DNA of 64,000 nt, taken from Enterobacter hormaechei subsp. xiangfangensis (GTDB lineage Bacteria; Pseudomonadota; Gammaproteobacteria; Enterobacterales; Enterobacteriaceae). The stretch covers positions 1,426,001 through 1,490,000 of the forward strand of contig NZ_CP017183.1 in assembly GCF_001729785.1 (NCBI RefSeq). Reading direction: 5' to 3'. The translations under genes and the position numbers were made by a program. Shown piece by piece: positions 46,029 to 50,524 of the stretch; positions within the stretch are counted from its first letter, which is position 1, and every line of letters starts with the position of its first letter. The notes under the pieces are model-generated. The model was not told the origin of the DNA, ran no database searches, and saw only the letters and a list, made by a program, of their open reading frames with translations.

Positions 46029-46045
46029 CTTTCATTCGAAAGTAA
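46029..46045. promoter_or_regulatory. shared motif copy A (CTTTCATTCGAAAGTAA) before ybiU
   Basis: CTTTCATTCGAAAGTAA, core dyad CTTTC-N4-GAAAG, begins 14 bases upstream of the ybiU start. The same 16 bases TTTCATTCGAAAGTAA recur at 47050 and, on the other strand, at 50508. Likely a repressor operator near the transcription start. Confidence 0.75.
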
Positions 46046-46166
46046 AAATGTCTACAAGCGATACTTTAAGTTAAAAATAAGTTAATGCAAGTTTAAAAAC
46101 TTGACCTGCGCCACAGGACGGGAAAATGAGTGAGGGTGCCGGAGCAGGACTCCGGCGAGGAAAGGA

Positions 46167-46982
46167 TCAGACGTCGAAAGGAGAGTGGTTGTCGAGCACG
46201 GCCTGAATGACGTTCAGCGCGCCCTGATGGTTGTTGTCGTCAGTGCTGTAGCGGCTGATTTCTTTGATGCTTTCCGCCGCGTTGCCCATCGCAAAGGAAT
46301 ATTTCACCAGCTTCAGCATCTCGGCATCGTTGCCGCTGTCGCCAATGGCCACGCACTCTTGCGGAGAGATTTTCCAGCGCTTCAGCAGGCGGCTGATGCC
46401 GTTGGCTTTGTGCAGGCCGGGGATAATTAAATCGACAAAGCCAAAGCCGCTGGTGACCGGCTTCATGATGCCGTCCAGGGAGACGTGGAGTTTATCCACC
46501 AGATTAGGAATATCGCTGTCCGGCAGGTTCAGGGAGAACTTAAACAGCACGTCGTCAATTTCGCGGTAATCGCTGATGCGCTTTAAGCGGTGATAGTGCT
46601 TTGACATCAGCGCCACGAACGCGTCAGGGGCCTGGTCGCTGACGTAGGCACTCTCCAGCCCGCAGGCCACAAAGTTCAGCCCTTTGTCTTTCAGCAGTTC
46701 GCCAATCACGATCTGCGACTCATGGCGGGTCAGTTCGCCGTGGAAAATCTGTTCGCCGTGATCGAAGACCAGCGCGCCGTTTTCCGCCACGAAGGAGATT
46801 TGATCCTTCAGTTCCGGGAAAAACGAGATGAGCTGGTAATACTGGTTGCCGCTGGCGACAACAAATTCAATGTTGCGGGCTTTAAGCTGTTTAAACTGTG
46901 CCTGGAAGCGGTCACGATCGTACTGCTTGGCATCATCAAGGAAAGTTCCGTCCATATCGGTGACGATAACTTTTACGGTCAT
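46167..46982 (-). CDS. ybiV: HAD-superfamily sugar phosphatase YbiV
   Basis: A 271-residue Cof-type (class IIB) HAD phosphatase. The nucleophile and general acid are Asp9 and Asp11 in VTDMDGTF; motif II is ASGNQYYQ (Ser/Gly near 44), motif III the Lys region SFGF...GLHKANG near 196, and motif IV GDSGNDAEML near 220. E. coli YbiV dephosphorylates sugar phosphates such as ribose-5-phosphate and fructose-1-phosphate. The start at 46982 has CAGGAG; a longer frame has none. A motif copy lies 67 bases upstream. Confidence 0.95.
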   Translation of the reverse strand: MTVKVIVTDMDGTFLDDAKQYDRDRFQAQFKQLKARNIEFVVASGNQYYQLISFFPELKDQISFVAENGALVFDHGEQIFHGELTRHESQIVIGELLKDKGLNFVACGLESAYVSDQAPDAFVALMSKHYHRLKRISDYREIDDVLFKFSLNLPDSDIPNLVDKLHVSLDGIMKPVTSGFGFVDLIIPGLHKANGISRLLKRWKISPQECVAIGDSGNDAEMLKLVKYSFAMGNAAESIKEISRYSTDDNNHQGALNVIQAVLDNHSPFDV

Positions 46983-47048
46983 ACTATGCTCCTGGGTCAC
47001 TGCGTTTTGAAACATTCTAATAACAAGGTGACGGGGAGCACAAATTTA

Positions 47049-47065
47049 ATTTCATTCGAAAGTAA
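47049..47065. promoter_or_regulatory. shared motif copy B (TTTCATTCGAAAGTAA) before ybiV
   Basis: ATTTCATTCGAAAGTAA lies in the gap between ybiV and the end of ybiW, 67 bases before ybiV. Sixteen bases are identical to copies A and C, with one change at the first base of the dyad. Confidence 0.75.
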
Positions 47066-49570: not shown

Positions 49571-49574
49571 AAGT

Positions 49575-50474
49575 TTATCCTCGTAATGTCGCGGTTAACC
49601 CTTTCTGGCAGGCGTACTGCTGCGCGAAGTCCAGCAGGGCAGGGTTATCCAGCGGTTTGTCAGGGGCAGAGTAGGGTTGGCCGAGCAGGGTGTATTTGTT
49701 CATGCCCAGCGTGTGATACGGCAGAAAATGAATATCGTGGACGCCGAGTTCATCGGCGGCGAAATTGGTAATGGCGGTAACGGACGCTTCATCGGCGTTA
49801 AAGCCCTGGATCAGCGGCACGCGGATGGTGATCGTTTTCCCGGCGGCGGCCAGGCGTTTCAGGTTGTCCAGGATGCGCTTAGCCGAACCGTCCGTCCACT
49901 GCTTGAAAACATCTCCGTCGACATGCTTCAGGTCGGCGAGGAACAGATCGACGTACGGTAATGACGGCTCGATATAGTGCCAGGGCACGTGAAGGCAGGT
50001 TTCAACGGCGGTATGAATGCCTTGTTCATGGCTGGCTTTAAACAGGGCGTGCGCCAGGTCAGGATTCATAAACGGCTCGCCGCCGGAAAGGGTGATCCCG
50101 CCGCCGCTGCGGTCGTAGAAGGGCTTGTCTCGCAGCACGGTGGCCATAATCTCCTCCACCTGCTTCTCTTCACCGCAGACGGTAAGCGCCTGGGTCGGAC
50201 AGCAGTCGGTGAGGGCAGTGAGCGTCTCGTCGTTAAGCTTCTCACGATGAATGACCAGCCCGTTCAGCGCGCGTTCAACACACCCCGGCGCGGCCTGCTG
50301 ACACAGTTCACAGCCGTCCAGGCACAGACGCGCATCAAACAGCACATCCCGGCTGCGGAAGCGGCTTTCCGGGTTCTGACACCAGCGACAGCCCAGCGAG
50401 CAGCCTTTCAGGAATACCACGGTTCGAATACCTGGGCCGTCGTGGGTGGAGTAACGCTGTATATTGAAGATCAT
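49575..50474 (-). CDS. ybiY: glycyl-radical enzyme activase YbiY
   Basis: A 299-residue radical SAM enzyme that installs the glycyl radical on YbiW. The SAM cluster motif is KGCSLGCRWCQ near residues 24-34 (CxxxCxxC), followed by a ferredoxin-like insert with extra cysteines (CLDGCELCQQAAPGC and DCCPTQ) typical of activases with added 4Fe-4S clusters, and SGGEP near 130. It is first in the ybiY-ybiW operon. In the divergent region with fsaA lie an FNR-like box and a motif copy. Confidence 0.95.
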   Translation of the reverse strand: MIFNIQRYSTHDGPGIRTVVFLKGCSLGCRWCQNPESRFRSRDVLFDARLCLDGCELCQQAAPGCVERALNGLVIHREKLNDETLTALTDCCPTQALTVCGEEKQVEEIMATVLRDKPFYDRSGGGITLSGGEPFMNPDLAHALFKASHEQGIHTAVETCLHVPWHYIEPSLPYVDLFLADLKHVDGDVFKQWTDGSAKRILDNLKRLAAAGKTITIRVPLIQGFNADEASVTAITNFAADELGVHDIHFLPYHTLGMNKYTLLGQPYSAPDKPLDNPALLDFAQQYACQKGLTATLRG

Positions 50475-50507
50475 TTTTTTGCCCTCTGATTACATATGAA
50501 GATTAAA

Positions 50508-50524
50508 TTACTTTCGAATGAAAG
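50508..50524. promoter_or_regulatory. shared motif copy C (reverse) in ybiY-fsaA region
   Basis: TTACTTTCGAATGAAAG, the reverse complement of CTTTCATTCGAAAGTAA. It lies 34 bases before the ybiY start and 78 bases before fsaA, so could control both operons. In orientation TTACTTTCGAATGAA it points toward fsaA, as the other copies point toward ybiU and ybiV. Confidence 0.78.

What the first reader, a model, noticed from the sequence alone, without database searches (positions are those of the whole stretch)
46029..50524. One 16-base motif before ybiU, ybiV and ybiY/fsaA suggests an undescribed regulon
TTTCATTCGAAAGTAA occurs at 46030-46045, 47050-47065 and, reversed, at 50508-50523. Each copy lies in a promoter region, none inside a gene. 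The core CTTTC-N4-GAAAG is a dyad, as expected for a dimeric repressor. In the direction TTACTTTCGAATGAA the copies point toward ybiU, ybiV and fsaA. It would join a 2OG-dioxygenase-like protein, a sugar phosphatase, a glycyl-radical enzyme with activase, and a transaldolase-like aldolase: a plausible sugar-derivative pathway. No regulator gene is adjacent, so it is likely unlinked (DeoR, RpiR or LacI type are guesses).
Basis: partly seen in the sequence, partly recalled or inferred. Interest (0 to 1): 0.8.

Follow-up and report, generated by a model that had tools for sequence, protein, structure and literature searches.

The report
YciT operators guarding an anhydrosugar pathway
The repeated motif is the binding site of YciT, a repressor already known from E. 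coli, and beside one copy lies a conserved oxygen-sensor site, so these genes for breaking down an unusual sugar are probably switched on only when the sugar is present and oxygen is absent.

Summary
In detail: three exact copies at the stated places and no fourth in this 4.66-Mb genome. "Undescribed regulon" is not: in E. coli K-12 the DeoR-family protein YciT is reported to bind before ybiV, ybiY and fsaA and to change their expression (PMC8464067), and to bind the ybiYW promoter (PMC12132413). This genome has an 82% identical YciT 1.05 Mb away. In 17 of 23 sampled genomes with true YbiY, yciT lies within 5 kb of ybiY, usually as fsaA | dyad | ybiY-ybiW-yciT; in four others without ybiY, yciT sits beside ybiU. 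So the regulator is YciT, orphaned here at its old rnb-yciH place. Not found in print in my searches: an FNR-type box at a fixed 19 bp from the dyad (56 of 64 distinct ybiY promoters), which puts FNR at -41.5 and YciT in the -10 spacer. That fits the unidentified activator in published ybiY footprints. YbiW is reported to be a 1,5-anhydroglucitol-6-phosphate dehydratase, so the likely logic is: on only with the anhydrosugar and without oxygen. Boldest reading: O2-using YbiU and O2-sensitive YbiW are two exits for one substrate.

The parts
46029..46042 (.). YciT operator of ybiU, CTTTCATTCGAAAG, ending next to the ybiU start region (start codon at 46013-46015)
   Evidence: exact motif copy; ybiU dyad within 1 mismatch in 28 of 28 core loci with ybiU; matrix score 23.4
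47049..47062 (.). YciT operator of ybiV, ATTTCATTCGAAAG (one half-site base off)
   Evidence: exact motif copy; ybiV dyad within 2 mismatches in 29 of 29 core loci, 73-77 nt before the start
50511..50524 (.). YciT operator between ybiY and fsaA, CTTTCGAATGAAAG; would cover -29 to -16 of the ybiY promoter
   Evidence: exact motif copy; dyad within 2 mismatches in 56 of 64 distinct ybiY upstreams
50530..50543 (.). FNR-type box TTGATGTGGGTCAA (9 of 10), centre 19 bp from the operator centre
   Evidence: box within 2 mismatches at this distance in 56 of 64 distinct upstreams, 23 perfect; shuffled 15 of 12800
50502..50507 (-). predicted -10 hexamer TTTAAT of ybiY (start of transcription about 50495)
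   Evidence: match to TATAAT peaks exactly 30 nt from the FNR centre in 52 promoters; inferred, not mapped
44759..46015 (-). ybiU (DUF1479/Gig2-like; HxD...H motif of 2-oxoglutarate oxygenases)
46167..46982 (-). ybiV, HAD sugar phosphatase
47070..47095 (.). terminator-like hairpin between ybiW and ybiV, consistent with ybiV having its own promoter
   Evidence: 6 terminator-like sites found in the region against 4.9 expected, so weak
47138..49570 (-). ybiW, glycyl-radical enzyme; E. coli ortholog reported as 1,5-anhydroglucitol-6-phosphate dehydratase
   Evidence: activity not tested here
49575..50474 (-). ybiY, glycyl-radical enzyme activase
50602..51264 (+). fsaA, fructose-6-phosphate aldolase
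   Evidence: NF009296 430 bits, cut-off 306

Best explanation
The motif is the operator of YciT, a DeoR-family repressor whose gene lies elsewhere in this genome (G000:C1:2527449-2528186). YciT binds the dyad CTTTC-N4-GAAAG, presumably as a dimer. Before ybiY the dyad fills the space between an FNR box centred at -41.5 and the -10 hexamer, so bound YciT would block RNA polymerase while FNR would activate only without oxygen. Separate operators before ybiV and ybiU place those genes under the same repressor without FNR. The inducer is probably a sugar phosphate of the pathway, 1,5-anhydroglucitol-6-phosphate or 1-deoxyfructose-6-phosphate, because YbiW is reported to convert the first into the second. 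Shown here: the sites, their conservation, linkage to yciT, the fixed FNR spacing. Shown by others in E. coli: YciT binding before ybiV, ybiY and fsaA, expression effects of deleting yciT, ybiY promoter activity without oxygen. Inferred: FNR as the activator, repression by blocking, the inducer, FsaA as the next step of the pathway.
For: E. coli YciT binds these promoters and its loss changes their expression (PMC8464067 passages and YciT section); YciT found on the ybiYW promoter (PMC12132413 passages). Same three sites in E. coli. YciT ortholog here, 82% identical, above the NCBIfam YciT cut-off (510 against 450 bits). All 23 sampled genomes with true YbiY have YciT, and in 17 of 23 it lies within 5 kb; 14 of these 17 have the dyad within 2 mismatches in the 160 nt before ybiY. 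42 of 43 named genomes with YbiW have YciT; the exception, Yersinia aleksiciae, also lacks the dyad. In Y. vastinensis the perfect dyad lies between fsaA and yciT. A matrix trained on ybiY/fsaA sites puts the six window and E. coli ybi sites on top of 114,387 positions, followed by pdeR, yjdM (phnA, a YciT target in Reg-Seq) and cusC-cusF (cusF is a ChIP-exo target). FNR box at fixed distance in 56 of 64 distinct upstreams, -10 match peaking at the class II offset, fitting published footprints.
Against: The ChIP-exo motif logo and peak table could not be seen, so the identity of the published YciT motif with this dyad is not directly checked; ompX (1.6) and ybiO (2.6), two reported targets, lack a good match. 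PMC8464067 reads YciT as an osmolarity regulator and names no sugar. No YciT-type dyad near yciT in this genome. Dyad or FNR box is missing or weak in 12 of 64 distinct upstreams, among them three (L122, L124, L127) with linked yciT; Y. vastinensis has YciT but no dyad before ybiY. Order-wide presence of the 16-mer (1 mismatch) is noisy, with many control hits. FNR binding is not tested here.
Confidence: 0.88

Rival explanations
1. YciT is mainly an osmolarity or general regulator and the ybi/fsa sites are a part of a wide set (49 ChIP-exo sites), not a dedicated pathway switch.
For: PMC8464067 reports 49 sites, 23 in regulatory regions, and an osmotic growth effect of deleting yciT; Reg-Seq lists YciT at phnA.
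Against: The gene neighbourhood of yciT across families is this cluster; the best matches to the operator matrix are its promoters; in this genome no other copy within 1 mismatch exists.
Confidence: 0.1
2. The adjacent LacI-type regulator (43671-44762) is the cognate repressor.
For: It overlaps the end of ybiU and stays with ybiU in many Enterobacteriaceae.
Against: E. coli K-12 and several Citrobacter loci lack it beside ybiU but keep the sites; it stands with its own MFS transporter and GH31 genes; the sites follow YciT in Aeromonas, Vibrio, Hafnia and others that have no such neighbour in the loci read.
Confidence: 0.02
3. Another DeoR-family paralog (this genome has nine further matches to YciT) binds the sites.
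For: DeoR-family proteins recognise related dyads (recalled); nine paralogs at 26-33% identity.
Against: YciT rows form one supported clade apart from the paralogs and share the SEVTIRQDL-type recognition helix; linkage is to YciT.
Confidence: 0.03
4. The three copies are a dispersed repeat or a chance likeness without function.
For: None beyond their closeness.
Against: 0.26 expected in the window; fixed positions across families.
Confidence: 0.005

Closest known systems
YciT regulon of Escherichia coli K-12 (DeoR family; PMC8464067, PMC12132413)
   Same: Same regulator (82% identical), same target genes, dyads at the same three promoters.
   Different: Here a conserved ybiU operator, the FNR coupling, the linkage of yciT to the cluster in other genera and the tie to anhydrosugar breakdown are added; the regulation itself is not measured in this species. 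PMC8464067 shows peaks before 'operon ybiUVWY'; whether one lies before ybiU itself could not be seen.
1,5-anhydroglucitol breakdown, 'radical-mediated glycolysis' (Ma et al. 2024, seen only through the review PMC12441222)
   Same: YbiW is the named E. coli enzyme; its activase and an FSA aldolase are encoded with it here.
   Different: No regulator or oxygen control is described in the passages seen; activity in this species is untested.
DeoR repressor of E. coli with several distant operators (recalled)
   Same: DeoR family; three separated operators in one locus (centres 1020 and 3462 bp apart here).
   Different: Different operator, targets and spacing; looping was not tested.
FNR class II promoters (recalled)
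   Same: FNR-type box centred 41.5 bp before the predicted start, with a -10 hexamer at the matching place.
   Different: A repressor dyad fills the spacer between box and -10; FNR binding is not shown.

Membership tests
YciT (DeoR-family regulator) | Regulator protein scores above the curated YciT model cut-off | tested here: met
   NF040887 510.2 bits, cut-off 450; HTH_DeoR and DeoRC domains
YciT regulon | Operator dyads before ybiV and before ybiY/fsaA | tested here: met
YciT regulon | Operator identical to the motif found by ChIP-exo | not testable with these tools
   logo is in a figure and peak tables in supplements, neither held; text says the YciT motif is palindromic
YciT regulon | YciT binds and regulates these promoters in this species | not testable with these tools
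   shown for E. coli only
FNR class II promoter | FNR box at -41.5 with a -10 hexamer in register | tested here: met
   start site predicted, not mapped
FNR class II promoter | FNR dependence of expression | not testable with these tools
   only indirect: ybiY promoter active without oxygen
1,5-anhydroglucitol breakdown cluster | YbiW ortholog, activase and FSA aldolase encoded together | tested here: met
   fsaA is missing from this place in some relatives such as L068, L157, L166, L170, L185
1,5-anhydroglucitol breakdown cluster | Growth on 1,5-anhydroglucitol through these genes | not testable with these tools
   reported for E. coli in a review
2-oxoglutarate/Fe(II) oxygenase (YbiU) | HxD...H iron motif | tested here: met
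   present in 10 of 10 aligned YbiU-like proteins; by sequence only

The most novel reading that the evidence does not exclude
YciT is the sensor of an anhydrosugar phosphate and controls two oxygen-matched exits for it: without oxygen, FNR plus YbiYW-FsaA open the ring by a glycyl radical; in air, YbiU, a 2-oxoglutarate/Fe(II) oxygenase by motif, would hydroxylate C1 of 1,5-anhydroglucitol or its 6-phosphate, turning it into glucose or glucose-6-phosphate, with YbiV as phosphatase or repair enzyme. Basis: the two modules replace each other beside yciT (ybiYW in 17 of 23 genomes with YbiY; ybiU in 4 genomes without YbiY; ybiV | dyad | ybiU-yciT in G097), the FNR box lies at ybiY, and the iron motif of YbiU is invariant in 10 of 10. 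The YbiU chemistry is my inference.
Probability: 0.2. Interest if true: 0.8.

Novelty: new member of a known kind. Interest (0 to 1): 0.5.

Why it matters
The YciT paper leaves its pathway open, and two preprints leave the activator and the start site of the E. coli ybiY promoter open. The comparative evidence offers one answer to each that a deletion strain can test: anhydrosugar use as the function, FNR at -41.5, YciT in the spacer. 1,5-anhydroglucitol-6-phosphate is the metabolite behind two human neutropenias (PMC12441222), and gut bacteria can consume its precursor; knowing the switch makes that controllable in experiments. It also gives a testable idea for YbiU, a conserved protein of unknown function.

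Tried and rejected
Autoregulation of yciT in this genome: only background-level dyad matches in its locus (3 found with up to 2 mismatches, 1.7 expected, none before its start). Two 3-mismatch hits beside another DeoR-family gene (L005, L006): this is the ula locus; the ulaG hit scores 6.8 and the bsmA/yjfP one 13.8. Presence of the 16-mer with 1 mismatch across the order: 27 of 42 genomes with YciT and 27 of 205 without, but many control hits, so treated as weak. A dyad before pdeR: 16.3 in E. coli, but -4.6 and 0.0 in the two other genera scored before the script stopped. YbiU paralogs of about 47% identity: no good dyad in G112 and G140 (best 2.9 and 4.9), a weak one in G026 (10.4, inside the ORF), a good one in G345 (22.2). 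Rfam: no family in 45500-51300. Simple sigma-70 scan: 1 promoter-like site, 1.8 expected, not at these promoters. Site orientation as evidence: dropped.

Full report
What is there. The three 16-base copies are exact and at the stated coordinates; none other occurs in the window within 3 mismatches, against 0.26 expected, and none other within 1 mismatch in the 4.66-Mb genome. The element is the 14-base dyad CTTTC-N4-GAAAG (46029-46042, 50511-50524) or, before ybiV, ATTTC-N4-GAAAG (47049-47062). The centre is flipped between this genome and E. coli at the ybiV site while the half-sites stay in place, as expected for a dimer.

Who binds it. A full-text search for ybiV, ybiU and fsaA together gave one paper, PMC8464067 (seen: passages and the YciT section). 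By ChIP-exo the DeoR-family protein YciT of E. coli K-12 has 49 sites, 23 in regulatory regions, among them before ybiV, ybiY and fsaA, whose expression changes when yciT is deleted; the authors suspect an uncharacterised pathway of ybiU, ybiV, ybiW, ybiY and fsaA. A preprint, PMC12132413 (passages), finds YciT by DNA chromatography near -5 of the predicted ybiY start and an unidentified activator near -20; the promoter is active without oxygen. E. coli carries the dyad at the same three promoters (16-mer with 1, 3 and 1 mismatches in one strain). This genome has a YciT, 82% identical, at G000:C1:2527449-2528186, about 1.05 Mb away.

Comparative test. Of 247 genomes of the order, 42 have YciT and 25 a YbiY-like protein (both E<=1e-60). 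Two of the 25 (G093, G154; about 40% identical, other neighbourhoods) were left out as paralogs. All remaining 23 have YciT. In 17 of 23 yciT lies within 5 kb of ybiY: G112, G140, G228, G116, G142, G047, G179, G210, G102, G221, G064, G098, G178, G141, G128, G197, G227. The usual order is fsaA | dyad | ybiY-ybiW-yciT; 14 of the 17 have the dyad within 2 mismatches in the 160 nt before ybiY, and G227, G141 and G197 do not. The six unlinked genomes are this one and G166, G188, G080, G208, G218, which carry ybiU, ybiV, ybiW and ybiY beside moeB (fsaA is missing there in G080). Four genomes with ybiU but no YbiY (G018, G097, G238, G209) have yciT beside ybiU, with a dyad of matrix score 26.4, 13.1, 17.8 and 17.2 near ybiU. 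The other 15 genomes have a YciT-like protein without either neighbour.

History (inferred). In G112, G140, Franconibacter helveticus and Serratia silvae the cluster stands between rnb and yciH, where yciT stands alone in E. coli. The simplest reading is that fsaA-ybiYW moved to the moeB locus and left yciT behind. Yersinia vastinensis shows another break: fsaA | perfect dyad | yciT stayed between rnb and yciH, while ybiYW sits elsewhere with no dyad within 3 mismatches. Y. aleksiciae has ybiYW but neither YciT (E<=1e-50) nor a dyad there.

Named set. In 43 (L145-L187) YbiW exceeds 60% identity; the other 37 were dropped as relatives of other enzymes. YciT is present in 42 of 43. The dyad is within 2 mismatches in 38 of 43; misses are L163, L164, L165, L179, L182. 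Shuffled upstreams reach 1 mismatch in 0 and 2 mismatches in 1 of 1340; an FNR box at a fixed position in 15 of 12800. Rows are related to each other, so the weight lies in the span: Enterobacter, Hafnia, Serratia, Aeromonas, Vibrio, Photobacterium, Gilliamella, Paludibacterium.

Promoter grammar. The order is FNR box (TTGAT-N4-ATCAA; consensus recalled), 5 nt, dyad, then a TTTAAT-like hexamer. In 52 distinct promoters chosen for having both box and dyad, the match to TATAAT peaks exactly 30 nt from the FNR centre (mean 4.02 of 6; 67% with at least 5; at every other offset tested 15% or fewer). That is the class II geometry with FNR at -41.5 (recalled), and YciT would cover -29 to -16. If the published '-5' marks the dyad centre, the published start lies 17-18 nt too far upstream; the same shift puts the FNR box at -31 to -17 and the -10 hexamer at about +5 to +11 of the published frame. 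This agrees with the activator near -20 and with the activator-like couplings at -30 to -15 and strong couplings at 0 to +20 in PMC13228646, which itself suggests a misassigned start (passages). In the fsaA direction the peak is weaker. Indirect support for oxygen control: YbiW strongly raised in Shigella in the gut (PMC3136414, passage), FsaA 163-fold higher in E. coli in the gut (PMC3686733, passage), fsaA raised on the shift to anaerobiosis (PMC6643234, passage citing another work).

Other promoters. In 29 core loci the ybiV dyad is within 2 mismatches in 29 of 29 (1 mismatch in 22, 2 in 7), 73-77 nt before the start; the ybiU dyad is within 1 mismatch in 28 of 28, one locus lacking ybiU. 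A matrix built from 20 distinct ybiY/fsaA sites ranks, over 114,387 positions of the window and six E. coli K-12 stretches chosen by me, the six ybi sites first (26.4 to 18.6), then a site before pdeR (16.3), yjdM/phnA (11.2), cusC-cusF (9.4) and bsmA/yjfP (8.7). YciT is listed at phnA by Reg-Seq (PMC7567609, passage) and cusF is a ChIP-exo target. Against a uniform match, ompX scores 1.6 and ybiO 2.6; ybiO has a perfect core but looks like a hairpin. An exact search for CTTTCDWWHGAAAG in 79 family genomes, one per genus, gave 61 places (reversed control 45): 33 before fsaA/ybiY, ybiU, ybiV or yciT, 1 before a ybiU paralog, 14 elsewhere (one of them without any ORF nearby), 13 not read (two in a 4.2-Mb genome, the rest in genomes of 2 Mb or less).

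Pathway. PDB entries 8id7 and 8yjn name YbiW a probable dehydratase. The review PMC12441222 (passages) credits Ma et al. 2024 (not held) with showing that YbiW and PflD of E. coli turn 1,5-anhydroglucitol-6-phosphate and 1,5-anhydromannitol-6-phosphate into 1-deoxyfructose-6-phosphate in a reaction that needs strict anaerobiosis. That FsaA then cleaves this product is recalled. I found no paper joining the pathway, or ybiYW, to YciT and FNR: of the papers holding at least two of anhydroglucitol, YciT, FNR and radical-mediated glycolysis, 10 of 25 were listed; of four holding ybiW and FNR, passages of three were seen and one only in the listing; five holding fsaA, FNR and anaerobic were listed and two opened. 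Subscription journals are mostly not held.

Verdict. Real and functional, and in its core the Enterobacter copy of the E. coli YciT regulon. The additions are the linkage of yciT across families, a conserved ybiU operator, the FNR coupling and a pathway-level meaning.

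Noticed in passing
window 39718-44762: A LacI-type regulator, an MFS transporter and a GH31 glycosidase gene lie together beside ybiU and recur there in several Enterobacteriaceae. GH31 also holds alpha-glucan lyases that make 1,5-anhydrofructose, a precursor of 1,5-anhydroglucitol (recalled); whether this one does is unknown.
   Followed up: partly
window 46985-47049 (ybiV promoter): A CRP-like box (TGTG-N7-TCAC type) directly follows the ybiV operator and is kept in most of the 16 core loci printed.
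   Followed up: partly
L064:5217, L122:11399, L123:11679, L124:5811, L125:5721, L126:11282, L127:11040: In all 7 loci of families f12, f20 and f21 with ybiY, a dyad within 1 mismatch sits in the last codons of fsaA, with further dyads before yciT in some: possible extra operators for looping or road-blocking.
   Followed up: partly
L068, L157, L166, L170, L185: Some relatives (two Klebsiella species, K. spallanzanii, Kosakonia and G080) have no fsaA between moeB and ybiY, yet keep the dyad there.
   Followed up: no
L134:8052, L135:7380, L139:8557: In 3 of 6 loci read from family f2, whose YciT-like protein has no ybi genes beside it, a dyad CTTTCATCTGAAAG lies just before the yciT-like gene, suggesting autoregulation.
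   Followed up: no
L005:1502, L298:4332, L065:8421, L066:8455: A weaker dyad between bsmA and yjfP recurs in this genome (13.8), E. coli (8.7) and two relatives: possible further YciT target.
   Followed up: partly
L017:4878: A good dyad (16.3) before pdeR, near yciT in E. coli K-12, not seen in the two other genera scored.
   Followed up: partly
window 22123-22136: A perfect FNR-type box TTGATACAGATCAA elsewhere in the window.
   Followed up: no
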